A stretch of 64,000 bases of DNA from the NCBI GenBank assembly GCA_010094045.1, contig ML986595.1, positions 372,001 through 436,000 of the forward strand, in the 5' to 3' direction. The DNA comes from Lojkania enalia. Taxonomy: Eukaryota; Ascomycota; Dothideomycetes; Pleosporales. The position numbers and the translations under genes were made by a program. The notes beneath the pieces are model-generated. The model was not told the origin of the DNA, searched no databases, and was given only the letters and a program-made list of their open reading frames with translations. Below, in pieces: positions 38,211 through 62,651 of the stretch; within the stretch, counting starts at the first letter, position 1; every line of letters begins with the position of its first letter.

Positions 38211-40694
38211 ATGGCGCACCGCACGACAGCCCCTTATGCGCCCCAAGACCCTCACGAAATCCAGCAGCTCGTGCACGCCCTCGAGTCGCACAAAGGCAAA
38301 AAGTCCAAGACCGGTGGCTTCTCCGTCAAGAAGCATACTTTCAATCTGCCCAATGGCCGATCGGTAGACTCGTGGAGAATGAATGACTGGGACTACAAGA
38401 AGCCAAACCTGCCAACCTATGCGCGCGGTCTGTTCACATACAAGACGCTAGACGGCAAGTGCGAGATCGCAGTTAGGGGATACGACAAGTTTTTCAACCA
38501 CCAAGAAGTCCGCAAGACGGAGTGGTGGAACATTGAGAAGCACACACGAGGACCGTACGAGTTGAGTGTGAAGGAGAACGGCTGCATTATCTTCATTTCA
38601 GGCCTCGACGACGGATTCCTGCTTGTATGCAGCAAACACTCGACAGGTGCGCGGGGAGATGTAGAGCTTAGCCATGCAATTGCAGGCGAACGATGGGTAG
38701 AGAAGCACCTTGCGACCGTCGGCAAGACAAAACAAGATCTAGCTAGGAAGCTTCGAGAGATGAATGCTACGCTTGTTGCAGAACTATGCGATGACGAATT
38801 CGAAGAGCATGTGTTGGCATATGCCCCTGAGCAAGCCGGCCTGTATGTTCATGGCATCAACTTGAACCTCCCAGACTTCGCTACCTACCCGGGGCACTTA
38901 GTAGACAAATTCGCCGATGAATGGGGAATGAAAAAGGTCATGTATGTCATGGAGGACGACATCGATGAGGTCCACCGTTTCCTAGACAAGGTCGCGGAAA
39001 CTGGAAATTATGCCGGACGTGATACCGAGGGATTCGTCATTCGGTGCCAGGCACGAGAGAATGAAAGTGCTCCATACGTTGACTGGTTCTTCAAGTACAA
39101 GTTCGAAGAGCCATATCTTATGTATCGACAGTGGCGAGAATGCACAAAGTCCATGATTGCTGGCAAACCCCCCCGCTACAAGAAGCATGAAAAGATTACC
39201 AAGGAGTATTTGGACTTTGCTCGACGACGATTTATGGAGCAGCCAGGATTGGCTAAACAATACAATCTAAACCATGGTATCATTAAGCTACGAGACGAAT
39301 TCCTAATATCTCGTGGAGTTACCGGGTCAGACATCATCCGTCAAGAGATGGAAAATGGCGAGGTTCATCCGAAGGACGTTACCCGTAATATTGTTTTGGT
39401 CCCTGTCGCGACTATTGGCTGTGGCAAGACTACTGTGGCACTGGCTTTGGTCAAACTGTTTGGATGGGGCCACTTTCAGAATGACAATGTGAAGGTCAAG
39501 AAGGGTCGCCCTCAGGTCTTTGCAGATACTATTGCTTCTTTAATGGTCACAAACCCGGTCGTTATTGCTGACAGGAATAATCACCAAAAGCGCGAACGCG
39601 ACCAACTGATCAATGATGTGTCCCGAACTGTCCCTGATGCTCGTTTCGTTGCTCTGCATTATGTTCACGACCGATCGAACTATGATAACATCCGAAAGGC
39701 TACTCGAGATCGCGTTCTCACACGTGGTGATAATCATCAGACAATTCAGGCAGGTTCGAAGGGACAAGACGAAATAATTGAGATTATGGAAGGTTTCATG
39801 TACCGCTTCCAGCCGATAGATATTACTGATGCGCCTGATGATGCTTTCGACTTGGTTATCGACCTGGATCCTACAGTATCGTCCCGAGAGAATCTGGAAG
39901 TCATCATTGAGAAGTTAAGCGGTGTATATCCTGCACTGTTCAAAGACCAAGACCTGCCCTCGGATGCTGATCTCGATGCTGCAATTGATTTGGCCATGAA
40001 CGACTACAAACCGGACATCAAGATGAACCTGTCACGTGGCGGCAACAAAAATCAGAGCCAGAATCAACATCAGAACAAGAGGCAAAAGCAGGATGAGCTG
40101 AAAGCAAAGAAACCACCTAAGATAGAGTATTTCTCTGTACGATTGAACACGCAGCAAATCAACTCCACCCTTGATGCTACGTTCCGTGACCAGACCGCCC
40201 AGACCGCGCGATTCTATCGTCAACTCCAGCAGTCACGTCGTGTGCAACCGGAGTTCCATGTGACGCTGATACACCGCGCCTCTACTCCCCAAAACCAGGT
40301 GTACTGGGACAAGTTATTGAAGTTGCACGAGGCTTTCATGCAACAAACGGACGCCAAGAGATCGTGGGAGCCAGAGCTCGGAAAATGTAGCGTTCATCTT
40401 GAACGCATAATCTGGGACGACAGGGTAATGTGCTTTGTTGTTCGCCTGAACGGCTCTAGCACCTTTCACGTCGAAACCGAAGGCGGGTCTAGTACTGAGG
40501 AGCTTGTCTTCAAGACCGTGAATCCAGTCGCGCATATCACGGTCGGAACGGCAAATCAGAGCATCAAGCCGAAGGAGAGCAATGATTTGTTGCAGAAATG
40601 GTTGAATGCAGGTTCTGGTAGCGAGACGGGTATTGGTGAATTAGCTATTAAGGGCAATGTTGTACTGGATGGTAGTGTTAGGGGTGTATTTTAG
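38211..40694 (+). CDS. TRL1: fungal tRNA ligase Trl1 (ligase-kinase-cyclic phosphodiesterase)
   Basis: One frame of 827 residues with the full three-domain order of fungal tRNA ligase. The N-terminal adenylyltransferase has the nucleotidyl lysine in SVKENG (Lys121) and downstream motifs EGFVIRC and WFFKYKFEEPY. The central polynucleotide kinase has the P-loop ATIGCGKTT (about residue 401-409). The C-terminal 2H phosphodiesterase has both signature histidines, FHVTLIH (His683) and VAHITVG (His775). The enzyme joins tRNA halves after intron removal and, in fungi, the HAC1/hacA mRNA halves of the unfolded protein response. A basic Gln/Asn/Lys linker (about residues 607-630) separates the kinase and phosphodiesterase domains. 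No intron. An alternative start at 38058 could add a possible organelle-targeting extension. All catalytic motifs are intact. Confidence 0.96.
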   Translation: MAHRTTAPYAPQDPHEIQQLVHALESHKGKKSKTGGFSVKKHTFNLPNGRSVDSWRMNDWDYKKPNLPTYARGLFTYKTLDGKCEIAVRGYDKFFNHQEVRKTEWWNIEKHTRGPYELSVKENGCIIFISGLDDGFLLVCSKHSTGARGDVELSHAIAGERWVEKHLATVGKTKQDLARKLREMNATLVAELCDDEFEEHVLAYAPEQAGLYVHGINLNLPDFATYPGHLVDKFADEWGMKKVMYVMEDDIDEVHRFLDKVAETGNYAGRDTEGFVIRCQARENESAPYVDWFFKYKFEEPYLMYRQWRECTKSMIAGKPPRYKKHEKITKEYLDFARRRFMEQPGLAKQYNLNHGIIKLRDEFLISRGVTGSDIIRQEMENGEVHPKDVTRNIVLVPVATIGCGKTTVALALVKLFGWGHFQNDNVKVKKGRPQVFADTIASLMVTNPVVIADRNNHQKRERDQLINDVSRTVPDARFVALHYVHDRSNYDNIRKATRDRVLTRGDNHQTIQAGSKGQDEIIEIMEGFMYRFQPIDITDAPDDAFDLVIDLDPTVSSRENLEVIIEKLSGVYPALFKDQDLPSDADLDAAIDLAMNDYKPDIKMNLSRGGNKNQSQNQHQNKRQKQDELKAKKPPKIEYFSVRLNTQQINSTLDATFRDQTAQTARFYRQLQQSRRVQPEFHVTLIHRASTPQNQVYWDKLLKLHEAFMQQTDAKRSWEPELGKCSVHLERIIWDDRVMCFVVRLNGSSTFHVETEGGSSTEELVFKTVNPVAHITVGTANQSIKPKESNDLLQKWLNAGSGSETGIGELAIKGNVVLDGSVRGVF

Positions 40695-41450
40695 AGACAG
40701 AGTTGTTAGTGAAGCGAGATGCTGACGAGAATTGGTGGCTTGAACCAAATGCCCGAATAGATAACGGTTTCATCACTCATGGAGCTAATGGAAAAGGCAT
40801 GGTAGGCGTTTACATTCATATTAGCAAGGCACATCTTATCTTGTTTGATAGTCGTAAGGGGACGGATCTCTACATATATTGAAAAACGTTAGGTCCTGAA
40901 AGATAGTAGGCAACCAACTCTGTTATACATTCTAACTAAGATCTTTCATTTGCTAAGGGTCGGAAAACGCCAGCCCCCGCAAGACTTAATTGAGCGCGCA
41001 TAGAAACGACCTAGATGATGTATTAAAAAATGCGTGCCCCAATATATTTTTACAAAGCAAACGATCTTACAGTATTTACACAATTACGACTAACCAACTA
41101 ACAATTAAGGAGTGAAATAAGCATATTACCAAAAAACGACGGGTCAGATAGTCAGCCGAGGTAAAAAGCACGCAATCCTAAAAGATGGACCTATGACAAA
41201 TCAGAGTGGGTATATGCGCATGTTTTTGATTTCAAAGACGGGAATATTTTCACTCACTAACGCAATATTTCCGTTACTTAATGGACCTCTATTGCTATTG
41301 CAGAGCGAACTAGGAATTTTCAAGTTGGCTTTTTTTGGAGTTGCGAGGCAGCGTTGTAGCGAGATCGACGGTTAGACTATTCCGTACCTCCCTGATAAAC
41401 ATCACAAGCGGATCGCAATAGATATCAATTGCCCTTCAACACCGTTCACA
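40695..41450. other. AT-rich intergenic region
   Basis: Contains the TRL1 3' UTR and the promoter of the oxidoreductase gene. It is AT-rich from about 41020 to 41300. No coding frame with motifs is seen. Confidence 0.6.
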
Positions 41451-42898
41451 ATGGCCCAGAAAGACATCAACAAAGGCGTTCCCAATCTCCCTTACTTCAC
41501 CCCTCAGCATGTCGTTTCCCCAGGCACACCTTTCCCAGGCATTAATCCAGAAGAAGTCCCAACACTCTTCAAACCCCTCAAGATCCGCGACCCCACCCTG
41601 CGTAACCGCATCATCGTAGCACCGATGTGCCAATATTCGACTGCTTCCTCAGGACCCGACACGGGAGCCCTAACAGACTACCACATCGCGACCCTCGGCC
41701 ATTACGCGCTCAAGGGATCGGCGCTAGTCTTCACCGAAGCAACGGGCGTCCAGGCCAATGGGAGAATCAGTCCCAATTGCCCCGGGATCTGGGACGATGC
41801 GCAGATCCCGGCTTTAAAAAGGGTCAGCGACTTTATAAAGTCCCAAGGCGCGTTGTCGGGCATCCAACTAGCACACGCGGGGCGCAAGGCTTCGACGGCG
41901 GCACCGTGGCTCTCGTCGAGGGATAAAAAGATTAGTATGAGAGCGACGACAGCGAGCGGTGGGTGGCCAAAGGACGTCGTCGGACCCATGGGTGGCGAGG
42001 AGTGGACGTGGGACGGAAAACCGTCCACGGATCCAGCGGGCGGGTTCTGGGCTCCCAAGCAGCTGAGCGAACGAGATATCAAGGAATTGGTCCGGGACTG
42101 GGCGAGCGCGGCGGAAAGGGCGGTGCGGGCAGGCGTCGATGTCATTGAGATCCATGGCGCTCACGGGTATCTAATCCATCAGTTTCTCTCGCCGGTTACG
42201 AATCAGAGGACGGATGGGTATGGGGGTTCGTTTGAGAATAGGACGAGGTTGCTCGTTGAGGTTATTCGCGCTATTCGCGCTGTGATTCCGGAGAGCATGC
42301 CCTTATTCTTGAGGATTAGTTCCACTGAATGGCTTGAAGAGACGGATATGGGCAAGAAGTATGGTTCCTGGGACGTTAAGAGTTCGATCAGACTAGCAAA
42401 GCTGCTGCCAGGTCTCGGCGTGGATCTACTAGACGTAAGCTCGGGGGGCAACCATCCAGGGCAAAAGATAAATATGTTCGATTCGAAGGATTATCAGACG
42501 CGGATCGCCGCAAGCATTCGTTCGGAGCTGAAGAAGGAGAATCTGAATTTATTGATTGGAGCTGTGGGATTGATCACCGAGGCCGAGCAGGCGAGGGATA
42601 TTGTCGAAGAGGGCGGTGCAGCAGCGAAGTTAAACGGCGCAGATGATTCAATCGCTCATGAAGCTAAAGCTGCTGTCCAGATGACACAGGGCCAGGAGCC
42701 CATGGCCGATGTCGTCCTCGTTGCTAGGCAATTCATGAGGGAGCCGGAGGTGTGTATTCGCAATAATGCATTCTTAGTGTCGACGTGTCTTAGTTGCTAA
42801 CTTTTGACTATTAGTGGGTCTTGAAGGTTGCTTGGAAGCTGGGCGTGGATGTTGCATGGCCGAATCAGTTTTTGAGGGTTAGGTTCCCGAAGTTATGA
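41451..42898 (+). CDS. NADH:flavin oxidoreductase, old yellow enzyme family (YqjM-like)
   Basis: Exons 41451-42749 and 42815-42898 give 460 residues; the 65-bp intron has a gctaac branch. The FMN-binding TIM barrel begins at about residue 40 (LFKPLKIRDPTLRNRIIVAPMCQYS). The Cys in APMCQYS is typical of class III, thermophilic-like or YqjM-type OYEs. The substrate-binding pair is in IQLAHAGRKAST (HAGRK), followed by IEIHGAHGYLIHQFLSP and NQRTDGYGGSFENR. The barrel closes with LIGAVGLI and ADVVLVARQFMREPE. The second exon (WVLKVAWKLGVDVAWPNQF) is a normal family C-terminus. Such enzymes reduce activated C=C bonds with NAD(P)H and FMN; the natural substrate is unknown. The N-terminal 40 residues (TPQHVVSPGTPFPG) are a common fungal extension. 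It converges on the HET gene with 174 bp between. Confidence 0.92.
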
Positions 42899-43072: not shown

Positions 43073-44356
43073 CTAGAGCTCCCCCATCTCTGTATCTCTG
43101 TCCACTGCTGCCCACCTAGCATCATGAGACTCAATCGAGGCAAGAACTTGGTCGAGTTGACTATTCTCAAGAACTAGCAGAGTCCGGGTCCGATTGCCAA
43201 TAAATTCAGCCTGATCGAAGGTATGCCACTCGGAGCAATCTATTCTCCTATAGGCCTTGCATTTCATGCCATTTAGAGTGCAATATGTATCTTCGATTTG
43301 TCTCAAGGGGAGACATAGGATTTTCCAGCTTCCTGCAATACAGATATCGCACTGAAGTGCCGCATATATGCAGTTCGACGACTTCTCAAGAACAAATGGC
43401 CGGATTTGTAGACCGACGTTCGTCATGCTGTATGCAGCTAGATAGTCTGGCGCCCATAGGCCTAGAGTTGGAGTGTCACGGAAGTTGGCGGGAGTATGTG
43501 CCAGGAGCCCGCTGCTCAAATATGGTCCGCGCCAGGCAAATATCGTCTGGTCGAAAGACTTCTTCATAATCTCGTCTTGCAATCGTCTGAACGCATTTTC
43601 CAGGCCTTCGCCATACAAGACAGCCATGTTGACGCCAAAGATTCCCATCAGGCTATATGCCAGGTCTTCGGGTCGCGAAGTCTCGCGTCGAGAAGCCCAC
43701 GACATGCGCTCTGCGATGCAGATTGAGTTGAGCTTCTTGCTATTCCTCAGCACCAACACAGTGATCCCCGTTATACATGAAATTACATAGTACATCTTGT
43801 CTGGCCCCCACATGTCATTGGGGATCATGCTCCAGTCTTCAGCAAGGAAAACGCGTTTTCTTGACGCAATCAGCTCCTGTAATGTCCACCCACGCGTGAA
43901 CCATCGACTTTTCTCGAAGGCCTCTTTCAGCACGGCATCGCTTTGTGGATCTTCTACAGCGGATTTCGGAGGAACATCACTGAGGTATACAATGCACAGC
44001 TCAGCCGCGCCATACCAGTGATACATACTGTTAATGGCCTCGGAGAGCTCAGCACTGCTCCTCTTATCAATGCATACCTTCACATGGGTTTAGTACTAAG
44101 CGCTCAAACTCATACGTTAGCGTTTACGCACGGTATCCATCCAAACCCATTCGTATCCATAGGCTTTTGCAGCATGAGCGAACTTCAGGATCTTCTGGTA
44201 GCGGCCTAGCTTTTGGAAGGCTTCGATGGCAATGTTGGCACCCTCATAGAACTGCACTTCGTCATCTGACCACGTGTGGGAGAGGATGGCGTAGGATGGG
44301 AGGTTGGTGCCGTAGAATTCCTTAAGTTTTAGGGTTTCTGTGTTTAGGAGCCACAT
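43073..44356 (-). CDS. HET-domain (heterokaryon incompatibility) protein
   Basis: Exons 44356-44132 and 44077-43073 give 409 residues; the intron is 54 bp. The HET domain fills the first 200 residues. Hallmark blocks are SYAILSHTWSDDEVQF (residues 20-36), WVWMDT joined to VCIDKRSSAELSEAINSMYHWY at the splice site, and WFTRGWTLQELIAS. Next comes the usual post-HET segment: MSWASRRETSRPEDLAYSLMGIFGVNMAVLYGEG and AFRRLQDEIMKKS. The C-terminal 170 residues are an undefined beta-rich extension (GLWAPDYLAAYS), without an NACHT, ankyrin or WD-repeat module. HET domains trigger cell death on non-self recognition in fungi; most genomes carry many copies. A stretch of unusual codon use is not obvious. 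The protein looks intact, and its partner is unknown. Confidence 0.9.
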
Positions 44357-46885: not shown

Positions 46886-49800
46886 CTAGAAAATCTTCTT
46901 GAACCAACTCCCTCTCTTTCCACCGCTAGGTTCGGCCGGGCGCCCATCCCATGTTCTGATAGGCGAATCGGTGTAGGTAGGAGGCGGCGCTGCATAGCTC
47001 TTCCTTCTACTCTTGCGGTCCCTATCCTCATCACTCCCTCGAGGACCTTCATAATGAGATTTCCTGCGATGATGCTTGCGTTCAGATCGTTCGCGATCCT
47101 TATCTCCCCCGGCGCGCTCTCGTTCCTTGTCACGTTTGGTCTTCCGTCCGGCAATGCGAAGGCGGATCTCTTCATCCGCAGAAGGTGATTCTTCGTCTCC
47201 AGGGGCATCACGTGCCCCTGGTGGGGGGTCGAGGACGGTCTCGGCGAGGGGTACTGGGAGCGGGGGTTCGTCGGAGAGCGAGTGGACCCATGAAGATGTC
47301 TTGTCGCCACCTTTAACGAGGTATGGCTGATTGTCTACAACCTCATCCCTCGGTGTGGGACGAGAGCTGCGATGACTCCGATGACGAGACTTATGTTCTG
47401 TCTCATTGCGCTCATCAAAGTAATCTGTAATGGGCCCCCCGTTGGTAGTTGGATATTCTGAGTTACGTTTGGCACGACGCTCGTCTCGGCGACGACGGCG
47501 GTCCGCCGGATCCTCATCCATGTGTGACCGGTAGCGTTCGTTGCGAGGGCGTGAGCTCTCCTGGTCTTTGTCCTTGCGCCGAGAGCGATGCTCGCGATCG
47601 CCGCCTTCCATAGCTCTGCGCTCCTCTCGTTCTGCCCTCCGTTGCTTCTTCTCCTCCATGCGACGAAGCTCGGTCTCGGCCTCCTTGTTGCGACGCTCGA
47701 GTTCTGCCATCTGGCGTGCTTTCTTCTCTGCAAGAATGGCTCGTTCCCTTTCGCGCTCACGCTCACGACGACGCTCTGCCCGAGCCTCAGCCTCCTCAAG
47801 CTCGGCGCGCTGTGCTTGCTTCTCTGCCTCGCGTCGGGCGCGGCGCTCAGCACGTCGAGCTTCGCGCTCGGCTTCTGCATCGCTGCTACCCCCGTTCATT
47901 TCAACGTCGCCGTCGGGCATATGCGAGGAGCGACGGACACTGCGGCGCTCATGACGCAACCGCTTCGCCTCGTCCTCAGTCGCGGCGCCGCGTGTGGACG
48001 ATCGCTTACGACGTCTGCGCTCGTCTTCGGTTTCGTAGGCTGTTTTGCGTCGCTCACGCCTGTCATCGTCCCCGGTGCGTTTACGGGAGCTGAGGCCAAA
48101 CATGCTCATCAAGCCGCCTGCTGCAGTTGCAGCTGCCATGTCTTTTGCGCCCGAGTTTCCGCGGTCGCGGCGCTCTCGTTCTCGTCGGGGTGGTTCAACA
48201 GGTGCAGGCTCAGTGTCGAGTGGGCCGACATCAACGGGATCGTCAGCGCTTGGTGGGGCGGTCAACGGTTCAGCTGGGGTGACGGGGTCGTGTTTTGATT
48301 TGTGGCTGGATGACTCAGCTTTGGGGGCGGGAGTAGGCGACGGCGGCGCCTCGTCATCCAACATGTCCATGTCATCGTCAATCGCATACGGGTCCGGGAC
48401 CGCTGCACGTGAATGGTTAGCCACACCTGTCCGCCCGTGCCGGACGAATTTCTCACCTCTTGCCTTGCCCTTGGCCGTTGTACTTGATCGCCTACTGACC
48501 GATCTCCGCATGCCCATCACCTTCGCTGCTTTCGAGGAAACCACCTTAGCATCCGTATCCGTCTGAGGGGGGGACATCATCGCGACATCTTCATCAACCG
48601 AGGGACGTCGAGACAGTGTCCTAGGGGTCGCAGATGTCCGACGTGACTTGGTACTGCGGGGAGGTGGTGGCCCGAAGAGCGAGGAGAAGCCAGTGGATGC
48701 ACGGGTCGACTTGGAGCGGGATGGTGTCTTGCTGATCTTGTCGGAGCCTGACGACTTTGACATGACGTCTTTCTCCTTCGTCGTCGAGACGCGTGCTGAT
48801 TTTGACCTCGCTAAGGCTGGCTTCGCAGGTGTCGCTGTGTTTGTTCCATCGTCGCCAGACTGTTTACGTGCTGGCTTTTGTCTCTGGACGGAACCCGCCG
48901 CGGCAGCACCCCAGAAGCCCCAAGATGATGCATTTGTGTTGCGCACGACCTTTGTGCGTTCCTTTTTGACGGGCTCTACTTTTGCCTCGGGTTCTAGTGG
49001 AGAAGTTGGAAGTTTGGTTGTGGCATCGTCAACATCTATCACTTCTACGAGGTCTACAATGTTATCGACGGTTGCGGGAGGCGGAGGCGGAGGCGGTGGT
49101 GGCGGCGCCTCGACGACAGACGCTGTTGTCGCCTTGCTGCTCTTCTTGGTTTTCTTCGATTTTTTGTCAGCTACGATTACGACAGGTTCTGGCTCGGGTT
49201 CTGCCGGGGCTGCAGCGGGAGCATTGAGGTCGATCAAATCCATCTCATCATCCATAGGGAAACCACCTGGAACAGGTGTGGCGATTTTGGGAGCTTCTAC
49301 AACAGGCTCGGGCTCAGGGATTACGAGAGGATCAGCGAGCCCTTTTGTCTTTGACTTCAAAGAAGACTTGGTGGCAGCACTCTTTTTAGACTTTGATGTC
49401 TTCTTAGGGGTTGCCTCGATGATCTCGACGGCAGGAAGATCTGGTGGAGGAGGAGGCGGAGGTTCTTGTGGTTCTGGTTCAGGGTCAGGTGCAAGTTCTG
49501 ACTCGGGTTCCACAACTTTATTCTTCTCTTTGAGAGCCCTTAACCGTTCTGAGACCAGACCACCAGACTTAGACGTCAATTTCTTTGACTTTACTGCCTT
49601 GGGTGGCGGATCGTCGACTACCGGAGGTTCTGGTACATTCGCCACATCCATAAGCGAAACCTCCTGTGCTGACTCCGCAATTATTGGCTCTTCCTTTTTG
49701 GGCTCGGACTTCCTGGTCTTCCGAAGTGAGATGCCCCAGGCACTGCCCCAGCCGCCGCTAGATTCTTCTTTTTGTGTGTCTGTCTCGAACTCGGCCATCA

Positions 49801-52800
49801 AGTCTGTCGCAAGTGCATCCCGTTTGTCCGAGGGAATATCGTCAATTAGTTTCAACAGGTCTTCGTCAACGGGTGCTGCAGGAGGCACGGGGGGAGGAGC
49901 AGGTTCTTCAACTATCCTGCCCTTCTTCTTCTTAGTCTTCTTGGACGAGGTACTTTCAAGAAGCTCCTTTTCGGCGGCAACACGGGCAGCTTCGGCCTCC
50001 TCTACCGCCTTTTGAGCCCGTTCGGCGGCCTCGGCGGCCTCTTGAGCCTCACGATCCAATCTCTCTTGTTCTTCCCGCTCTTTCATTTCTCTAGCTTCGC
50101 GGGCCTTCTTTTGGCTTGCTGTCTCTTTCTTCTTTGTAGTACCCCAAGAACCCCAAATACTGGTGCTTTCTTCGGCCTCTCTTTTGGCGTGAGCAGCCGC
50201 TTCCTCGGCTTCTTTGGCCTCCCTTTCTAACATCTCTTGCTCCTCACGTTCCTTCGCGAGGCGTTCTTGTTCTTCCTTCTCTGCACGCTCCTTTTCTTCC
50301 TGTTCGAGTCGTTCCTTTTCCTCCCGCTCCTTCTTCTCCCTAGCCTCTCGAGCCCTCTTCTGAGCCTTCGTTTCTTTCTTAGAACCACCCCAGATGCTGC
50401 CCCATCCTGAGCTCTTCTCTGCTTCTTCGGCATCTTTCTTCGCTTTCTCAGCCTCTTCCGCCTCAATTCGGGCCCTTTCTGCAGCTTCCTCCGCCTCCTT
50501 GAGTTCCTGCTCAAGGCGCTCCTGCTCCTCCCTCTCTTTCGCCTCTTTTTCTAAACGCTCTGCTTCCTCTTTTTCCCTCTTTTCCCGAGCCTTCTTCTCC
50601 TTTGTGGTCTCCTTTTTGGGCTTAGTCACGGCCGTTCCCCAGGTACTCCACGTGCTTCGTGCGGTATCGGCAGCTGATTCTTCTTTCTTTTCCTCGGCCT
50701 TTGGTTCGTCAAGTTGAATAAGATCTTCTAGAGTATCTTTCGGCTTGGATGATGAGGAATCCTTCGTCGTAGTCTTGCTAAGCTTGCCAATATCATCTGT
50801 GGGCTCGTCTTTTCCTTTCTTTTTCTTCTTCTTGGATGTAGAGAAGCCCCATAAATCATCTTCCTCCTTCTTTTCCTCCACTGGAGGAGCCTCAATTTGT
50901 TTCGGCTCGGGAGCCTCTGGCTCTAGGAGGTTATCGCCCCTTTCGCCAGGGGGGGTAGGTACCGGAGGTGGAGCGAGAACCGAGCCTTTCTTGCCCTTCT
51001 TGGTCTTCTTACTCATGTTAAATGCAGCGCTTCCCCAAGGATCTTCTTCGTCGGGCTTCTGGACCGGTGCATTATGCATCTCCTCCGTCACTTCAATTGG
51101 GGTGTCCTTCTTGGAAGCCTTCTTAGTCTTCTTCTTGCCCCACGACGGAGTTCCCCACTCATCTTCTTCCTCTTGTTTTGGCTCCTCGACTCCATCAGGC
51201 TCTTGGACTGTGGGAGCCGGGTCTTCAGCTGCAGGCTCCGGTTCTGGGGTTGGCTCGGGCTCGGGGTCGACCTCTACTGCTTTACCCTTCTTCTTTTTCT
51301 TGCTACCTCCCCAGATAGCACTAAATCCCCAGGCATCGTCCTCTTTCTTTTCAGGCTCGGGCTCTGGTTCTGGTTCTGGCACAGCTGCGGGGGGCGCAGG
51401 CGCTTCTGGCGGGGGTGATAGTTCTACTACTTTCTTACCCTTCTTACCCTTCTTTGTTGTAGTTGTAGCCCAATTTGACCAGTCATCTTCTACCTTCTCA
51501 GCAACTGGCGGTGGTGGGGGAACTTCTACAATAGGATCTTCCTTTGGAGCTTCGGGCACGGTAGCTGAAATAGGCCCCTTTTTCCCTTTCTTCCCTTTTT
51601 TAGTGACAGTGGTACCCCAATCGCCCCAAACATCGTCAACAGGCTTCTCTTCGGCAGCCGGTTCGGGTGGTGGTGGTGGCGGCGGCGCGGGGGATTCTTC
51701 AACTTTTGGTGGTTCTTCCTTGGCGCTCTTTTTCCCTTTCTTTTTCTTGGTTGTTGTAGTTCCCCAAGCCGCGTCACCCCAGATGTCATCATCTTTCTTT
51801 TCTGGTTCTTCAACCTTGGCCGGTTCGGGTTCGGGTTCGGGTTCGGGTTCAGGATCAGCTACCTTGCCAGCTTTTTTAGCTTTTGCTAACTTCTTCTTTT
51901 CTTTGTTGCTAAGGCCAAAACCCCAATCATCTTCTTCCTCTTTGGGCGGCTCGGCGGCTGAGTTAGGGGTGGGCTCGGGCTCGGGCTCGGGCTCGGGCTC
52001 TTTGGTAGGTTCGGGAGAATTTACTGGTTCCTCTTTTCCCTTTTTGCCCTTTTTCTTCTTCGTCGAGACACTGAACGAGCCCCAATCGTCCGCTGGGGGG
52101 CTTGTATCTTCGGTTGCTAGGGGCGGAGGGAGCGCCTCGACTTTGGGTTCCTTTTTAACCTCCTCAACAACATTTTTTTTCCCTTTCTTCCCTTTCTTTC
52201 CAGTTGTAACAGCGCCCCAGCCCCACGTATCATCCTCTTTGACGGGTTCTGGTTCTGGTGCAGGCTCGGGCTCGGGCTCTGGCGGAGGGGGAGGCGGAGG
52301 TTCCTCAATAGCTATAGCGCCCTTCTTCTTTTTCTTCTTATCTTTTGCGCTACCGAATGAAAAGGACGCCCAGGTATCCTCGTCCTCTTTGGGCTTGTCC
52401 GGCTCAGGCACTGGGGTTGGTTCAGGTTCTGTGGGAGTCTCTTCAACCAAGGCAGTGCTGCCTTTTCTGTTCTTCTTCTTAGCCTTACCACCAAAACTAA
52501 AACCCCAGCCCTCATCTTCTGCAGATTTGTCTTCAATTGGCGCAACTGCTGCAGCAGCAGGCGCGTTGAACGCGTCGAAATTAAAGTCAAAGCCCGAGGA
52601 GTCCTTTTTCTTTTTATCCGTGGATCCCCACGGGTTATCTTCTTTGCCCTCGTCTTTGTCTTTCGGCTCATCGAGGGCACTATCAAAACCCCAGGAAGAC
52701 TTAGTTCCCCAACCAGATCCTAAGCCAGAAGTCCAGCTAGATAGTCCTCCGCTAAAGAAACCCGGCGATTTAGCAGCTCCTGTATCTCCAAAACTCATAT

Positions 52801-53938
52801 CAATTTTAGGTGCTGCGGCCGTAGAATCGTCAAGATTAATATCGTCAAATGTTGTGGCTGGGTCTGCTGCAGGTTCAGGATCCTTTGGAGGTGGTGGAGC
52901 TGCAGGTTCAGCCGCCTATCGTGGGGTTAGTGTACGCGCAACGTGTAATTAAGCAACCGAAATTGCGAACCTTCCCCTTTTTACCCTTCTTCCCCTTCTT
53001 CCCCACGGTCGCGAACGTTCCCCAATCATCATCTGGTTTAGCTTCTTCAACCTGGTCGGCCCAACTTAGATCGCCAGCGGCAGTTGTCGCTGCTGCGGCA
53101 GCTTCTTCTTCTTCTTCCTTTTTCTTTCGGTCCGCCTCCTCTTCCTCCTCTTTTTTCTTGCGCTCGGCTTCTTCTTCATCCTGTGCTTTCTTGCCTTTCT
53201 TTTTCTTTTTCTTACCAGTGTCCCAATTAGCCCACTCATCGTCGTTGTTGTCGCCACCTCCGCCTCCTCCCTCCCCACCATCGCCACCACCCGCGCCTCC
53301 GTTTCCTCCATCTGCGGGAGGATCGCCGCCGCCGCCCGAACCTCCAGTCGCCTCCTCTTCCTTCTTCTTGTCCCCATCGTCGTCCCAATTAAACGCATTG
53401 TTCTTCTTAGCTGCAGCCTTCTTCTTCTTCGCATGCGACTTGACCCCATCCTCATTGAAGCCAAAGTCAATCGTCGCATGTAAAGATTTTTCGTCGAAAT
53501 AGAAGGAAGAGTCAGGTGAAGCATTACAGCTAAGACGCAGACAATTGGGAACATTAGAACAGAGAGAGGGATTGAGTGAGGGAAACGGTGTATATTCAGG
53601 TGTTTGCGCAGCGGCGAGAGCATCGGTGGTGGTGTAGTCTGGGGGGAGGTCTGCGAGTGTGTCATGGTAGGAAGGGGGGGGCGACTTGTCGTTGACAGAG
53701 CTTGGAAGCCAGAGCTCAGGCGACGGGACTGGGCTCGGAGGGAGGAATTCGGATAACTGAGTTGCGAGATCGCGAATCTTCTGGTCGTTAGCGCCGAAGC
53801 TGCGGTGTGATGTGTACAAATATAGAGCATTAACTAGTCACAAGACGGCCATTGCACTCTTGAGAATGAGGGAGAACCCCGGGCCAGAACAATTAGAGTA
53901 TGCTAAAGAAGACGGATGTTTTCATACCGAGATCGCAT
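46886..53938 (-). CDS. giant disordered protein with tandem acidic-WG-polyLys modules
   Basis: Proposed exons: 53938-53928 (11 nt, Met-Arg-Ser), 53799-52971 and 52915-46886, giving about 2,289 residues. Introns are 128 and 55 bp; the second has a cactaac branch. Residues 1-130 are Pro/Ser-rich. From there to about residue 1,050 some 20 modules repeat the same grammar: a Pro/Glu spacer (PEPEPEPEP), an acidic run, a Trp-Gly core, then KKKKGKK. Examples are DDTWGWGAVTTGKKGKKGKK, DDVWGDWGTTVTKKGKKGKK and DDWGSFSVSTKKKKGKKG. Three long Glu/Lys/Arg helices follow (EKKAREKREKEEAERLEKEA type). The middle is Ser/Lys/Pro-rich, then an Arg/Glu (ERERERERA) coiled-coil region, ending GGKRGSWFKKIF. No enzyme domain is present. 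The Trp/Gly-acid pattern recalls Argonaute-binding GW/WG platforms; septal-pore or structural roles are equally possible. The N-terminus is uncertain (next entry). Confidence 0.75.
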
Positions 53939-56190: not shown

Positions 56191-58687
56191 CTAAAATGGC
56201 TGGCCCTCCAACTCCTCGCCATTGAGAACTCGTCGCGCCTCATCAAGCCTTCGACGCCATTCTTTCCGTTCGTACTGGTCCCCAAACGTGCTCTGGAGGT
56301 TTGCGCAAACCTCCTGGAAGCTCGCTGCGAGGCTGTGGATGAGCTGTTTTTCTTCTTCATTGAGAGCGAGTCGCGGCTCCGAGTGAGATGGTGTTTCAGT
56401 CAAGATAGAAAAGAGCTTCGATATTTGAAGCCCGGAAGTAATGTCACTCCCAGGGAAAGAGACGCGCAAAGTCTGCGATGTCTGACCGGGGGACCGGTTA
56501 GACTTTGATCGCATGTCAGCCACAGAATCGGAGGGCGTGGACACTCCGTTCAATGTGGCGTATTGCGATGCAGTCGGCTGCTGTACGGGCAGCATCTGAC
56601 GGGAGAAGTGGTCCATCTCCTCGTTCTCGTCCTCATCATCCGACTGTTCCTCGGCTGCAGTTGCAAAAGTCGCCACGGTCGAGACGGAATCCACGCTAGA
56701 ATTGCGCTGGTGGAAGGAGATCCTTTTCGCCGAAGCCGTGGACTCCTGGCGCGTGTGTAAGGCGGTTATGGGTCTAGTTGTGGCAACTGAGTCGTTTGAA
56801 CTTGCACTCGATCTACGACTGGTGGAGCTATATGTTCCCATAGCACTGTGTAGGAAGAAATGCTCATAATCGAAAGCATCTACGCGATCTTCATGGCGCT
56901 CGGCAACAGGCATTTCATATACGGCATCTTCATACACGCTGCCGCCCGAGGGTTCGAGGTCTTCATCAACTGAAACGAAATCACCATCATCCATGCCCTC
57001 CTGCTCACGATCTAGGTCCTCTATATGAGTGTCCTCTCGCAGGAGATCTTCTGCATCTGTATAATGGCTTTCAGAATATTCTTGCTCGCTTTCGAGATCT
57101 TGCTGCTCCAATGAGTGCTGGTTTTGCCTAGAGCTATTCGCTCGCTTGCGTGGAGGTGTAACCTCGCTGAGCTTCGGAGCGGACTCGTCAAGTTCTCCGT
57201 CCTCGTAAAGCGGTCTCTGCCCCAGGGACTCTTTCCTTCCTACAGTGCTAGCATCTGTGGTGAAAGGTGCGGTCGCAGGTTTATAAGTTTCTGCACCTCC
57301 ATACCATATCTCTGCCGAGGTGAAGGGGCTTGGGGTGCGTAGACTTTGCAAGCTGCGCCGTCGCAGGCTATCTTCCTGGGCTCTTTGCTTAAGGCTTGAG
57401 ATTCTACCCTTCAAGTCGCTCATTTGACTTCGCAAATCAGTAGCGGTGGAAGCCGACCGATGGAGTTTCGGGCCATCTTCATTTTCTAGCAGCGTCTCAA
57501 GGACATTTGGCGGTGACTTCGAACCCCTAGAATGGGAACGCAAGGAGTGCTCAGGGTCTTCGCTGTTCCACCCAATGCTCCGCGATCCGCGCATTACCTC
57601 AAAACTGCGGGACTCTCTGATAGGAAACCGCCTATTTCCATGGCCTTCTGGTAACCACGGCCCGCTCCCTACACCCATGGCACTTGAAGCTCTTTTATTC
57701 GGCGCCGTCCTAGTAGTATGGGGTGGAGTAAAGTTGATCTGAGTTTCGCTAGCAACTCTAGAGTGACCATTATTGCCATTAGATGAGAGCGGCGAGGAAT
57801 GATATGGCCGCGTTCTCGGAGGTATGGGACCTATTCCAGCATACAACCGTCTGTCCCGTTCACGGGCGGCTGCAAGTTGTTGAGACAGTTCTGACTGCAT
57901 TTTCATAGTGTTAAGCGTGGGAGAAACCACCAAAGACTGCCGAGCCCCTCTGAGATTCCCTTCCATCACCTGTTTCCTGTCAGCCTGCTTTGAACATCAC
58001 GCATTGGCAGACATCGCATACGTTTAATCGTTTCTTAGCGTTTGCCAGAATCATTTCAGCCCGCCTGCTGAGGGCGGCCGAAGAGTACATGTCATCATCA
58101 ACTTCACTCTGACCGTCCAACCATCGTTCGTTGTCCATGTCTTCTTCCCCGGGGGTTTCTGTTGGGGAGTGGTCAGGTACCTCATCTTCCTCCAAAACTA
58201 CCCCGCTGTCGTCAAACTCGTTCGAACTGTCAAAACCAGGCCACTTCAAGGTCTCCATTTCGTCGCTTTTCGGAGAGTCCGATGCATTGCTCGCCCTCTG
58301 TGGTTGATGATTGCCCCAATTGTCCACGTGCCTTGTAGACAGGGAGTCATTGATGGTTGGAGAAGAAGCCAGCGCATCGTCCCGCGCATAGCTCTTTCTC
58401 GAGCTGCCATCCGAATCGCCCATGGTGCGCAGTGTCGAGCGAGATGAGCGCGAGGAGAGGGGCGGGGATTTTATCTGCGGCGAAGGCCGACGAGTGGTCG
58501 GTGGGGACGCGAGCTTGATGGTGAGCGCTGAGTGATTCGAATGATGGTATAGGCTCGAGGGCGACGGCGGGCGCTCGACATACGGTGCGGGTGACGAACT
58601 GCGCAGCGAGTCGGCCTCGGGAAGAATCATGCCAGCATCGCTCAGGACCGGCGAGCGCGGAGTCGGCAGCCCATTGGGAGCAACCAT
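56191..58687 (-). CDS. conserved hypothetical protein, mostly disordered with ordered C-terminus
   Basis: Exons 58687-58022 and 57969-56191 give 814 residues; the 52-bp intron joins KKRLN to VMEGNLRGAR in phase 0. The N-terminal half is Ser/Pro/Arg-rich (NGLPTPRSPVLSD, SPAPYVERPPSPSS). Residues about 195-250 are more conserved-looking: WLDGQSEVDDDMYSSAALSRRAEMILANAKKRL, then SPTLNTMKMQSELSQQLAAARERDRRLYAG, likely helical. A short coiled coil (LRSQMSDLKGRISSLKQRAQ) follows at about residues 410-430. The C-terminal 70 residues (NEEEKQLIHSLAASFQEVC, then QYERKEWRRRLDEARRVLNG) form a probable helical domain I recall as conserved in filamentous fungi without known function. Acidic patches and many Ser/Thr-Pro sites suggest phosphoregulation. 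The start at 58687 has a good context (ACCATGG). Confidence 0.8.
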
Positions 58688-59472
58688 GGTTGACGGCTTC
58701 CTTATATCAGGTCGCGGCCGCGCATGGCTGAGTTCCGGGAGGATCGAGTGCGCACCTGTCGTGGGCTTGCAACGGCGCTTTGGGGATCGGGATTCGTGGA
58801 TTTGGCCTGTATCTGGCGGGGGACACGAGCACGACGCGTGCAACCATCAATCTCAGCTCGCGACAGCTTGGAGAGACGGTGTTCAAAGTTTTTGAGACTG
58901 GCCCATGCCGCCCGTTTAGGGGCGATGGCTCGCCCTGGCCATTGGTTACATGGCTCGCCTGCCGTTCTCCGCCGGCGCCATGCTAAGAGTCCTTCCCTGC
59001 AAATACCATGCCGTGGTAAGACTATTAGACCGCCTTGGGCCAAACATGGCCGCTGTTGCGCATCGCTACATACATACGTACCGCACCTCTCGCACCGAAC
59101 CGCCCGCAGCTAGACCCACCAGGGCACCGGTCTACGCACATATGGATTGGAGAGTGCGGAGAGACCACACAAAGGCCACAGGACAACATTCTGGACGCCG
59201 CGGAACCTGACTTGTTTTCGCCCGTGTCCAATCCATCACCCTTGACGGGCCTGTGTCCGCATCTGACGCGCCGCTGAAGGGGTGGTCCCAGCACCGTAGA
59301 TTAGTGTCCAGGGCCGACGGACGTAATTATTTTGCCTCGACTGGTGCGCCTATACACTCTGTACAGTACCTACCGATCTCGCCGAAGGAAATGAGCCCTG
59401 CCCCGCCAGCCGGCCATTGCTTCCTGCACGCCATGTCGAGAGTTTGAGGTCCTGCAATATGTCACCATCGGT

Positions 59473-59796: not shown

Positions 59797-62415
59797 TTAC
59801 AAGAAGTCATCATCATCATTCCAACCTAAAGCATCGTAAATCGATGCTTCGTCGTTGCCCTTGGCAGGGTTCGAAAAAATTGGGAAAGGGGATGCAGCAA
59901 TCGCTGTAGTGGTTTTGATTGGCGTCGTCAGTACGTCAGGCGGGGCAGTGGGAGTCTTGCTCGAACAAGGTAGCGGGGCTCTATCTTTAATAGGCGTTGC
60001 AAAAAGCATCCTGCGACTCGCCGCCGAGGTCAAGAAGACCTTGTTGTTCGGGGCTCTGGTAGGCGTCTCGGCGACACTATGCCCGGCTGAAGATCGGGCA
60101 GTTGCAGTGTGAACAGTTCCTGGATTCGACGAGGTCAGATGCACCACGGAAGAAGGGATACAGAAATTGCTCGAAAGCGGTGCATCCATTACATTATCTC
60201 GAACGAACGGATTTCGTTGCTGGACAGGTGTCTGTTCGCCGATGGCGTCCTTGGTTCTCTTGATGACCCGTGGTGTTGCCGAAACTTGGACATCTTTTAT
60301 GATTTTGCGAACAGGATTTGCTGGCTTTCGTGATTTATTGGTAAGGCCCAGTCTTCGACGTTCAATATCATCCGCATAGCTCCCGGCTGCAAGACTTCGA
60401 TTAGGCTTTTTCAAAGCTGAGATTGCTTCTTTCAAGTCTTCTTCGACCCTCTTCTTTTGTTTCAATTTCGCCGCTGCACCTGCAGTTGGTGTGCTCAGGT
60501 CAATTTGGCGTCCTTTGAGGAGGTTAAAATATGACATGGACTGCCTTGCGGCCGCAGAAGGACTACGTTGCAATGGAATTGCAGTCAGTGGTATCTCGCT
60601 ACCCTCCCGTTTTATATCGTGGACCAGGGCAGAATCCGTGACAGAACGGTTCAAGGATGGTGTTGCCCGTTGCTCTCTAACCCGGGTTGTTGTGTCGGTT
60701 AATACCCGTCCAAAGGATCGCCGCGCCTTCTTTGGCTCTGGTTCTTTAGGTTCTCCGGATTTTTGCGATATTTTTGGGGGTTTCATGGCCTTCCGCTTCG
60801 GTGGGGATGTATGTACTGGGCCACCAAGCTTCTTGCTAATCATTCTGGCCTGTTCTGGAAGCCTGTTCATGTAAAATGGTACAATGACTTCAACACAGAA
60901 ACTTTGTAGACGGTCTTTTCCGGAAGGACCTTCACCAGTATGTGACGGTATCGCATCGAAGTCGAATATCTCGTCCTGATCCACAGACTGCCAAATACAT
61001 AGTTTATCAAGAAGTAAATCTAATTGGAGTTTGATATCGTCGAGCTTCCTCTTCCGCTTCTTTGGTTTCGCCTGAGTGTCTGCCAGAGATTGTGTCTCGG
61101 CATTATGGGTTTGGACGTCCTCCAGTGGCTCTTTGTACGCCGACAAGGCCTCGAGTGCCAAAATTTCGAGCATTAAAATCATCTGGCCAAGAGTTTCGCG
61201 AACGCGCAAGTCTCCGATGCGCCTTTTGATCCTCTGCTCAAGGGTTTCCTCGCCGTGTATTTCTAGGTTCGGTAGCTCTGACATCCACCACTTCTTGATT
61301 ACGTCCCTTTCCTGAGGATATACGCCCTCTCTGCTCAACTTTAACTTCTGCTTCAACTTTCTAGTCTTGGATGCTCCATCAACCGCATCATCGTCCGAAT
61401 AGCAGCTAAGGGGGATAGATCTAATGACATCCGGCAACTTCTCTCGATATTTCTTGTCACTAGCTTTGTGACTAAGAAGCATCGACCTGAGGAAAGTGAC
61501 CAAGTCGCACGTTGGCGGGACACCTTCAGGTGAAGTGAATGCCATGCGAATTCGAGTAATTGGTCCTTTAACAAAGTACGCTAATGATGTCTTCGACATG
61601 TAAACAGCATCTAGGTATTGTTGGACAAGATTTTCGAGGAGCTGCTGCGGAGAAGGTGCTGCGACGGGAACATCGCCAGGTACATGAATTGTGTTTTGGT
61701 CAATCCGTGTATCCTCACTCACAGCTTGGGCAGAATGAGCCAGTGATACTTCAGACTCGATAATCTCCGGCTTTGGCAGCAGCATGGCAATTCGAACACG
61801 TTTTTGGGGCCTTTCGTCTGGCAGAGTCTGTAGTGTGGCTTGCTTCCACCATACTTCACCCTCGCTCTCTTTCTGTTCCGCTTCCGCATGCCTCGGATAA
61901 AGTGCCAACTTCGCAGGGTCCCATAAATCCCCAACATCCTTTTCCTTTAGCCAGTTGGCTAGCTTGCATAGACTGAAAACATGTGGTTGGACACGTTCAA
62001 TCGCATAGAGGAGCTTGTTGGTTTCATAGCGTGCGATGAGGATCTTCTGTGGGGGGTTTTCCACATTGTTGGCATTGTATGGCTTCTCTAGAATTTCAAT
62101 ATCCGCAGAGAAGAGACGGTTGGGAGCAAAATCCGAATCTGGAGATGTGTCGAGGAACGTGAAAGGGAGCTGTGAGCGGCCAATGATTCGAATTGGTCTG
62201 AAGGTGGATGGCTTATCGTACGGCAACTCCGGGCGTGATTTGATTGTGAAAGATTTGTTGAAGGCCCCAAGCCCACAGATGCTGTCCCGTTTCCGCTTAG
62301 TCGGGAGTTGAGCTTTGGACTCAAAGTTGTGTTTTGGTGGCCGGCCAAGAATTTTGGCAGGGTCCTTAGACAGTGATTGGGGAACTGTCTTCGTAGAGAG
62401 TGTGTAGGGAGACAT
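59797..62415 (-). CDS. SLD3: DNA replication initiation regulator Sld3
   Basis: One frame of 872 residues. Residues about 270-560 match the Sld3/Treslin domain that binds Cdc45: LLENLVQQYLDAVYMSKTSLAYFVKGPITRIRMAF, then FLRSMLLSHKASDKKYREKLP, then VIKKWWMSELPNLEIHGEETLEQRIKRRIGDLRVRETLGQMILMLEILALEAL. The N-terminal part (ILIARYETNKLLYAIERVQ, HVFSLCKLANWL) fits the region that binds Sld7 in yeast. The C-terminal third is disordered and basic, with many Ser/Thr-Pro sites (PTAPPD, TTPIKTT, FATPIKD) suited to CDK phosphorylation and Dpb11 binding. Sld3 recruits Cdc45 to loaded MCM and is a limiting CDK target. The identification rests on the domain pattern from memory. The start at 62415 is the first ATG. 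Partial MCB and E-box elements lie upstream. Confidence 0.85.
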   Translation of the reverse strand: MSPYTLSTKTVPQSLSKDPAKILGRPPKHNFESKAQLPTKRKRDSICGLGAFNKSFTIKSRPELPYDKPSTFRPIRIIGRSQLPFTFLDTSPDSDFAPNRLFSADIEILEKPYNANNVENPPQKILIARYETNKLLYAIERVQPHVFSLCKLANWLKEKDVGDLWDPAKLALYPRHAEAEQKESEGEVWWKQATLQTLPDERPQKRVRIAMLLPKPEIIESEVSLAHSAQAVSEDTRIDQNTIHVPGDVPVAAPSPQQLLENLVQQYLDAVYMSKTSLAYFVKGPITRIRMAFTSPEGVPPTCDLVTFLRSMLLSHKASDKKYREKLPDVIRSIPLSCYSDDDAVDGASKTRKLKQKLKLSREGVYPQERDVIKKWWMSELPNLEIHGEETLEQRIKRRIGDLRVRETLGQMILMLEILALEALSAYKEPLEDVQTHNAETQSLADTQAKPKKRKRKLDDIKLQLDLLLDKLCIWQSVDQDEIFDFDAIPSHTGEGPSGKDRLQSFCVEVIVPFYMNRLPEQARMISKKLGGPVHTSPPKRKAMKPPKISQKSGEPKEPEPKKARRSFGRVLTDTTTRVREQRATPSLNRSVTDSALVHDIKREGSEIPLTAIPLQRSPSAAARQSMSYFNLLKGRQIDLSTPTAGAAAKLKQKKRVEEDLKEAISALKKPNRSLAAGSYADDIERRRLGLTNKSRKPANPVRKIIKDVQVSATPRVIKRTKDAIGEQTPVQQRNPFVRDNVMDAPLSSNFCIPSSVVHLTSSNPGTVHTATARSSAGHSVAETPTRAPNNKVFLTSAASRRMLFATPIKDRAPLPCSSKTPTAPPDVLTTPIKTTTAIAASPFPIFSNPAKGNDEASIYDALGWNDDDDFL

Positions 62416-62651
62416 TGAAAGCTGGCATGACGCTGCGTGTGGTGTGGTAGTGTGCGGGGTTCGAGTTGAGTTTACAGTTGACAGTCGTGTTGCTCGACGC
62501 GCGCGCTCGACACGAGAATTGGACGTGGCACGTGCGCCACTAGCCTCATTACGTCATCTGCCGAGGCGTGACCACCGCAAGTGTGGGAGAGGAAACAGGT
62601 AAACCACTTCACACGCTTTCCTAAGGTGGGATATTCTATATATTATTAAAA
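62416..62651. promoter_or_regulatory. divergent SLD3 / F-box-like promoter with E-box, CRE-like and partial MCB sites
   Basis: Within 236 bp: GACGCG at 62496-62501 (MBF-like core), CACGTG at 62529-62534 (E-box) and ATTACGTCAT (ATF/CRE-like) around 62548-62557. These are perfect or near-perfect core motifs. Their use is inferred from known fungal factor preferences. Confidence 0.45.

What the first reader, a model, noticed from the sequence alone, without database searches (positions are those of the whole stretch)
46886..53938. Giant protein of about 20 acid-WG-polyLys modules
Seen: a roughly 2,290-residue disordered protein in which one grammar recurs about 20 times: Pro/Glu spacer, acidic run, Trp-Gly core, KKKKGKK block. 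The Trp and the basic block are kept while spacer lengths drift, which suggests selection on each module. Known: Trp flanked by Gly and acidic residues in disordered arrays binds Argonaute in GW182, Tas3 and plant NRPE1/SPT5L; the basic blocks could bind RNA or anionic membranes. Inference: a multivalent scaffold for small-RNA machinery, an RNA condensate or a septal plug. I recognise no named family.
Basis: partly seen in the sequence, partly recalled or inferred. Interest (0 to 1): 0.75.

Follow-up and report, generated by a model that had tools for sequence, protein, structure and literature searches.

The report
Giant disordered fungal scaffold protein
A fungus encodes a very long floppy protein built from repeated acidic-tryptophan-lysine modules, with relatives in many lichen-forming and other sac fungi and no known function; it probably works as a multi-armed glue that gathers partners into clusters.

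Summary
A three-exon model on the minus strand (53938-46886) gives 2,289 residues, with 14 strict and up to 23 looser acidic-Trp-polyLys modules. The pattern exceeds controls. It is directional across 159 proteins (1457 forward, 120 reversed), and array Trp is kept in 81% even when hidden from the aligner. The genome shows one copy; exons 2 and 3 have no Pfam match over cut-off. All names shown among 158 listed homologs are 'hypothetical' or 'uncharacterized'; the named sources are Dothideomycetes and Lecanoromycetes (three looked up, the rest recalled).

The Argonaute reading is not supported: Gly follows Trp in 59% of modules, and 67% have a second aromatic at +2 to +5, mostly W-x-x-F/W.

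Not in the finding: an N-terminal tandem PY element, PPxY-x5-D-x-PPxY, in 34 of the 38 proteins with an N-terminal PPxY, and conserved C-terminal motifs ending in KRGSWFKKI.

Best explanation: a block-polyampholyte, sticker-and-spacer scaffold that condenses as the nucleolar protein Treacle does, docked by PPxY to a WW protein, perhaps the genome's Rsp5-type ligase. Its site in the cell is open. An unnamed family, but a variant of a known kind.

The parts
46886..53938 (-). Whole gene: exons 53938-53928, 53799-52971, 52915-46886; 2,289 aa predicted; one copy found in the genome
   Evidence: frame, splice sites; no paralog found with two pieces of the protein
53634..53678 (-). N-terminal tandem PY element PPSYHDTLADLPPDY (residues 45-59); family pattern [PL]P-x-Y-x5-D-x-PP-x-Y
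   Evidence: 38 of 159 proteins have PPxY in the first 260 aa; 34 of them have the tandem with a 7-residue spacer, all 34 with the Asp; 0 of 3180 shuffles
50726..53270 (-). Main array of acidic / Trp-x-x-aromatic / polyLys modules (residues about 181-1010, interrupted by intron 52916-52970)
   Evidence: blockiness of charge z = 10.2; positive blocks z = 15.2
49856..50668 (-). Three W-x-x-W or W-x-x-x-W modules separated by roughly 80-100-residue Glu/Lys/Arg helix-like spacers (residues about 1030-1300)
   Evidence: sequence; helix inferred from composition, not modelled
48908..48964 (-). Conserved KKERTKVVRNTNASSWGFWG region (residues about 1598-1616)
   Evidence: invariant K, R, V, S, W, W in 31 rows; [SA][SN]WGFWG in 102 of 159
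48371..48394 (-). Conserved DPYAIDDD motif (residues 1788-1795)
   Evidence: invariant columns; pattern found in 144 of 159
47597..47878 (-). 94-residue single helix (residues about 1960-2053), the only long element modelled with confidence in the last 730 residues
   Evidence: model residues 401-494, ten-residue means 85-96 except the last stretch (55); 510 of 730 residues under 50; shorter helices weaker
47285..47305 (-). Conserved DKTSSWV motif (residues 2151-2157)
   Evidence: T[SA]SWV in 119 of 159
46889..46918 (-). Conserved C-terminal tail KRGSWFKKIF (residues 2280-2289)
   Evidence: loose tail pattern in 130 of 159

Best explanation
It is a single-copy, almost wholly disordered scaffold. 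Shown: alternating acidic, aromatic and lysine blocks, conserved in order and direction; a conserved N-terminal tandem PPxY in most relatives whose N-terminus shows a PPxY; conserved C-terminal motifs. Inferred: acidic blocks of one module pair with lysine blocks of others, and the Trp cores act as aromatic stickers, so the protein condenses by itself or with RNA or partners (block-polyampholyte coacervation, as reported for Treacle). Inferred: the N-terminal tandem PPxY docks a WW-domain protein, most likely the Rsp5-type ubiquitin ligase, which could tag the scaffold or its clients and so control the condensate. The lysine blocks and Arg-rich C-terminal half make a nuclear or nucleolar site slightly more likely than a septal or cortical one, but the site is not established.
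For: Charge blockiness of the array against 500 shuffles: z = 10.2 overall, 15.2 for positive blocks, 5.4 for negative blocks; net charge -41 in 830 residues. Order acid-W-base 1457 against 120 reversed. Trp and Lys are the best-kept residues in 44 pairs. Last 730 residues: mean pLDDT 49, one long confident helix. Tandem PPxY with a 7-residue spacer and Asp in 34 of the 38 proteins with an N-terminal PPxY. The genome has a locus with C2, three WW and HECT segments on contig C19. Literature: Treacle is described as a block polyampholyte whose alternating charge blocks stabilise condensates, and scrambling its charges reproduced the condensation-defective phenotype (PMC11996177, passages); K-blocks with E-rich regions are described as a nucleolar grammar enriched across eukaryotes, fungi included (PMC10936679, passages).
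Against: No localisation, condensation or binding data exist here. In the passages seen, nucleolar K-block proteins are not described with a conserved Trp in each block, so charge alone does not explain why Trp is so conserved; a specific Trp-binding partner may be needed. Phe in the array, the commonest second aromatic, is not better kept than average (66%; 63% masked), and 458 of 1444 modules have no second aromatic within seven residues. The C-terminal part is hardly blocky (z = 2.0). PPxY with a seven-residue spacer is wider than the two-residue spacing that gives the tightest WW-tandem binding in animal proteins (PMC6744271, passages). The tandem was found in 34 of 159 proteins; many others are probably N-terminally incomplete, but annotated models P0001, P0004 and P0021 have only one strict PPxY, P0027 has a six-residue spacer, and P0005 and P0144 show no match.
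Confidence: 0.45

Rival explanations
1. Each module is a linear motif for one specific Trp-pocket partner: the acidic-aromatic pattern D-D-x-W-[GAS]-x-[FW] resembles motifs that bind the ear domains of AP-1/GGA clathrin adaptors (for example WNSF of GGA1), and the polylysine and tail bind membrane. The protein would then be a trafficking scaffold with PPxY recruiting Rsp5.
For: Second aromatic at +3 is the commonest position (637 of 1444); acidic residues at -3 and -2 in 61% each (249 modules of 34 proteins). GGA1 binds AP-1 through a WNSF sequence (title of a cited reference seen in PMC11375261). Rsp5-type ligase locus present.
Against: A pattern relaxed from the acidic-Phe ear motif (motif recalled, Phe replaced by Trp) fits only 258 of 1444. 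Polylysine directly behind the core is not a feature I know of ear ligands. The AP-2 form WxxFx[DE] fits 2 of 1444.
Confidence: 0.12
2. Septal-pore plug protein: a disordered protein that aggregates at the pore on wounding, like SPA/SPP proteins of Neurospora and Aspergillus.
For: Named relatives are all Pezizomycotina as far as looked up or recalled; giant disordered protein. SppN of A. [quoted passage not shown]
Against: SPP/SPA disordered regions are reported biased to Arg/His with antipathy to Lys/Gly; this array is 17% Lys and 0.5% Arg. No sequence link to any SPA/SPP protein could be tested; none of the names shown is so annotated.
Confidence: 0.15
3. Argonaute hook: the Trp residues fill the PIWI Trp pockets and the protein organises small-RNA machinery.
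For: Trp in disordered repeats with small and acidic neighbours; PIWI matches at three loci of the genome, two of them near full length. AGO hooks are disordered repeats with conserved Trp, mostly GW and WG (PMC10991848, passages); Trp separated by ten or more residues, as in TNRC6 (PMC9262622, passages), is met between clusters.
Against: Gly beside Trp in 916 of 1444 modules (63%), and WG without a nearby second aromatic in 300 (21%); polylysine at +6 to +16. In the Argonaute at L009 the aligned counterparts of AGO2 residues F653, F659, K660, E695 and Y698 are I, H, P, G and E, and R688 is K, while P590, A620 and L694 are kept (read from the alignment; list of pocket residues recalled; second Argonaute not examined).
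Confidence: 0.07
4. Low-complexity drift: charged repeats kept by composition alone without a specific function of the modules.
For: Spacers vary and many modules are imperfect (14 strict of 23 clusters); random Trp placement already gives up to 13 strict modules.
Against: Trp conservation above all residues tested but Lys in 44 pairs, also when masked; directionality 1457 to 120; conserved C-terminal motifs.
Confidence: 0.06

Closest known systems
Treacle (TCOF1), a block-polyampholyte nucleolar scaffold
   Same: Long disordered protein of repeated acidic and basic blocks with a basic C-terminal part
   Different: No sequence relation tested or claimed; no conserved Trp module or PPxY described in the passages seen; animal protein (PMC11996177, passages)
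K-block + E-rich-region nucleolar proteins
   Same: Lysine blocks interspersed with Glu-rich stretches
   Different: Here blocks are preceded by a conserved Trp core (PMC10936679, passages)
GW/WG Argonaute-hook proteins (GW182/TNRC6, NRPE1, SPT5L, Tas3)
   Same: Disordered array of Trp with acidic and small neighbours
   Different: Second aromatic at +2 to +5 in 67% and polylysine behind each strict module
SPA / SPP septal-pore proteins, SppN in particular
   Same: Disordered, Pezizomycotina, conserved proline-rich N-terminus in SppN
   Different: Lys-rich array rather than Arg/His-biased; no sequence relation tested
Rsp5 adaptors with PPxY (alpha-arrestins and others)
   Same: PPxY docking element near one end; Rsp5-type ligase locus present
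   Different: No arrestin or other folded domain found

Membership tests
Argonaute-hook (GW/WG) proteins | Several Trp with adjacent Gly in a disordered region | tested here: inconclusive
   GW or WG in 916 of 1444 modules, but a second aromatic at +2 to +5 in 972 of 1444
Argonaute-hook (GW/WG) proteins | Binding to the PIWI Trp pockets of the host Argonaute | not testable with these tools
   Pocket positions (recalled) partly not kept in the one Argonaute examined; no binding data
SPA/SPP septal-pore proteins | Localisation to the septal pore | not testable with these tools
   needs tagging
SPA/SPP septal-pore proteins | Disordered regions biased to Arg/His, poor in Lys/Gly (a reported bias, not a strict definition) | tested here: not met
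   array Lys 17%, Arg 0.5%, His 0.1%, Gly 8%; the C-terminal part is 17% Arg, 2% His, 7% Lys, so the failure concerns the array
Lah / leashin Woronin-body tether | Sequence relation to Lah | not tested
   no Lah sequence at hand; Lah is described as a transmembrane protein (title of PMC5345055, listing); Pfam finds nothing over cut-off here
AP-1/GGA ear (GAE) ligands | Acidic-Phe type motif (recalled) | tested here: inconclusive
   258 of 1444 fit a relaxed pattern with Trp in place of Phe
AP-2 alpha-ear WxxF ligands | WxxFx[DE] (recalled) | tested here: not met
   2 of 1444
Atg8 (LIR), Pex14 (WxxxF/Y) and kinesin-light-chain (W-acidic) ligands | Wxx[LIV]; Wxxx[FY]; W[DE] (recalled patterns) | tested here: not met
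   90, 48 and 89 of 1444
Block-polyampholyte condensate scaffolds (a working type, not a homology family) | Non-random alternation of charge blocks | tested here: met
   z = 10.2 against 500 shuffles of the array; only 2.0 for the C-terminal part
Block-polyampholyte condensate scaffolds (a working type, not a homology family) | Condensation in vitro or in cells | not testable with these tools
   needs purified protein or imaging
PY-motif (WW-binding) proteins | PPxY/LPxY in a disordered tail | tested here: met
   tandem element in 34 of 159 (34 of the 38 with PPxY in the first 260 aa); binding itself not tested

The most novel reading that the evidence does not exclude
The acid / W-x-x-aromatic / polylysine unit is a new self-complementary sticker: about twenty copies in one chain form a fungal condensate whose assembly is gated by a ubiquitin ligase (or another WW protein) clamped on a rigidly spaced tandem PPxY. 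It would define an organising protein of Dothideomycete and lichen-forming fungi for which I found no description.
Probability: 0.3. Interest if true: 0.72.

Novelty: new variant of a known kind. Interest (0 to 1): 0.5.

Why it matters
The searches list 158 relatives (some fragments, and only part of the hits shown) of a giant protein without a functional name; the listings give a precomputed Pfam domain for just one of them (P0132), and the window's own exons 2 and 3 have none over cut-off. The pattern is regular enough to test charge, aromatic and PY contributions to condensation one at a time. If it marks a compartment, it would give a handle on cell organisation in lichen-forming and rock-inhabiting fungi.

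Tried and rejected
Family libraries: Pfam gives nothing over its cut-off for exons 2 and 3 (PPP4R2, NYD-SP28 and Presenilin on exon 2 all lie below their cut-offs and look like charge-composition matches). Other family libraries were not tried. Solved structures: none at E 0.01 for exon 3.

Paralogs: the C-terminal 804 residues hit only themselves. A 1,005-residue array piece hits itself and a weak overlapping self-match in a frame with 18 stops.

Known Trp motifs (patterns recalled): LIR 90, Pex14 48, KLC 89, AP-2 WxxFx[DE] 2, of 1444 modules: rejected as explanations of the array.

SOFT/PRO40, a WW protein found at septa, as PPxY partner: the best single-WW locus outside the HECT ligase (C22) proved to be a PhoD-type phosphatase, so I did not find SOFT; of the other WW loci only C10 was also scanned with Pfam and C76 only fetched. 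In PRO40 the WW domain was dispensable for the tested interactions (PMC4154660, passages).

Tree of the conserved C-terminal block (34 rows chosen out of 135): the window protein falls in a 14-row group whose named members are Dothideomycetes (support 94, not starred), at an open fork, on a long branch (1.24), with no starred set around it; P0040 and P0140/P0141 have very long branches and were probably cut at the wrong place. Taxonomy was looked up for three names only; the other classes are recalled.

Structure: one of two jobs used; no fold search was run, because the model is mostly of low confidence.

Literature: in the listings I saw no title or abstract about this protein; the lists were capped and subscription papers are mostly not held (Lai et al. 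2012 was not held).
Full report
Gene. The finding's coordinates describe a spliced gene on the minus strand. Exons 53938-53928, 53799-52971 and 52915-46886 join in frame into 2,289 residues; both introns have GT..AG ends. Exon 3 is one open frame of 2,009 codons. The start codon and the 11-base first exon are predictions; no transcript was available. The large plus-strand frame opposite the gene (50718-52949) mirrors low-complexity codons and is not evidence of a gene.

Modules. With Trp residues at most 12 apart taken as one cluster, the protein has 27 clusters, 23 of them ahead of the conserved C-terminal WGFWG; 14 pass a strict acid-before, base-after test. In 1000 shuffles of the whole protein the largest count is 6; in 1000 random placements of the Trp alone the largest is 13, so the count alone exceeds the harder control only narrowly. 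The order is the stronger evidence: 1457 acid-W-base against 120 reversed over 159 proteins. Tandem Repeats Finder sees no module-length array in the gene, only periods of 6 to 33 bases, and lysine is coded by both codons (178 AAG, 103 AAA), so the pattern is held at the protein level.

What the core is. Over 1444 strict modules of 159 proteins, Gly follows Trp in 857; the first further aromatic lies at +3 in 637, +2 in 160, +4 in 115 and +5 in 60, and none occurs within seven residues in 458. In the smaller set of 249 modules from 34 proteins, Asp/Glu occupies -3 and -2 in 61% each, and Lys is the commonest residue from +6 to +16. The unit is therefore acidic, Trp usually with a second aromatic close behind, polylysine, rather than a GW repeat.

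Family. Three searches returned 33, 202 (120 listed) and 93 hits, together 158 listed proteins. Named sources include Cercospora, Baudoinia, Friedmanniomyces, Elasticomyces, Coniosporium, Oleoguttula and Delphinella (Dothideomycetes) and Xylographa, Xanthoria, Letrouitia, Heterodermia and others (Lecanoromycetes); taxonomy was looked up for Coniosporium, Xylographa and Oleoguttula, the rest is recalled. Some models are labelled partial or look like fragments. The window's genome shows one copy.

Selection. I took 135 of the 159 proteins (those with a WGFWG-type landmark; 24 dropped) and picked 44 non-overlapping pairs out of 824 eligible ones, 60-92% identical in the C-terminal block. Trp in the array is identical in 88%, Lys 85%, Phe 66%, and the others lie between 49% and 73%, His at 36%. 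Because aligners favour Trp, I masked ten residue types in turn: Trp 860 of 1066 (81%), Lys 81% (helped by long runs), Glu, Pro, Asp and Gly 68-69%, Phe 63%, Val, Met and Tyr 51-53%. Trp is kept beyond what the aligner forces; Phe, the usual second aromatic, is not kept better than average, which weakens the bi-aromatic reading.

N-terminal element not in the finding. Residues 45-59 read PPSYHDTLADLPPDY. Thirty-eight of 159 proteins have a PPxY in their first 260 residues. Thirty-four of these have [PL]P-x-Y, exactly seven residues, PP-x-Y, and all 34 have Asp as the sixth spacer residue; no shuffle of 3180 gives the pattern, and it occurs nowhere beyond residue 400. The other four are P0001, P0004 and P0021, with one PPDY only, and P0027, with a six-residue spacer. 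PPxY and LPxY are recognised by WW domains (PMC8509885, abstract in the listing). The genome has a locus with C2, three WW and HECT segments on contig C19, the make-up of Rsp5 (recalled). In animals very tight tandem binding needs a two-residue spacer (PMC6744271, passages), so modest affinity is expected here.

C-terminal part. Conserved motifs stand in otherwise variable sequence: SSWGFWGA, DPYxIDDD, TSSWV, KRGSWFKKI. A model of the last 730 residues from 31 aligned sequences has mean pLDDT 49; its one long confident helix spans 94 residues, about residues 1960-2053 (71 residues of the whole model reach 90). No folded domain is apparent. This part is Arg-rich (17%) and hardly blocky in charge (z = 2.0).

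How it may work. The array is nearly neutral overall and strongly blocky (z = 10.2). Treacle, described as a block polyampholyte, condenses through such alternation, and scrambling its charges reproduced the condensation-defective phenotype (PMC11996177, passages); K-blocks with E-rich regions favour the nucleolus and are reported enriched in nucleolar proteins of 11 species, with fungi named (PMC10936679, passages). I infer the same physical principle here with an added aromatic sticker, and docking through PPxY. Localisation remains open. Confidence 0.45 for this statement as a whole.

Rivals. Argonaute hook: the genome has Argonautes, but the motif is not GW-like enough and several recalled pocket positions differ in the one Argonaute examined. 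Septal plug: composition of the array differs from the reported SPA/SPP bias; SppN's disordered body and proline-rich N-terminus (passages) keep the idea alive. Clathrin-adaptor ears: W-x-x-F is suggestive, but only 258 of 1444 fit a relaxed ear pattern. LIR, Pex14, KLC and AP-2 patterns fail.

Verdict. Observation confirmed, with a correction of the core. The interpretation as a multivalent scaffold is supported, the Argonaute link is not. An unnamed, conserved family; new variant of a known kind; interest 0.5.

Noticed in passing
window 59800-62553 (-): Open frame with a full Sld3 STD domain (DNA replication regulator), about 6 kb upstream of the giant gene.
   Followed up: no
window 37992-40691 (+): Fungal tRNA ligase with ligase, kinase and phosphodiesterase domains.
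   Followed up: no
window 36606-37376 (+), 41376-42797 (+), 43076-44089 (-): An exon-sized frame of homogentisate 1,2-dioxygenase, an NADH:flavin oxidoreductase, and a weak HET-domain match.
   Followed up: no
window 56194-57996 and 57983-58846 (-): Two open frames of 601 and 288 codons without a Pfam match at E 0.001, upstream of the giant gene.
   Followed up: no
window 53634-53678 (-): Tandem PPxY with a seven-residue spacer and Asp, conserved in relatives; became part of the main account.
   Followed up: yes
L017 1645-4176 (-): A PhoD-type phosphatase that carries its own WW domain and a PPPAY stretch.
   Followed up: no
G000:C4:623141-623886: Third PIWI match in two pieces with a stop in each; a divergent, intron-split or decayed Argonaute.
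   Followed up: no
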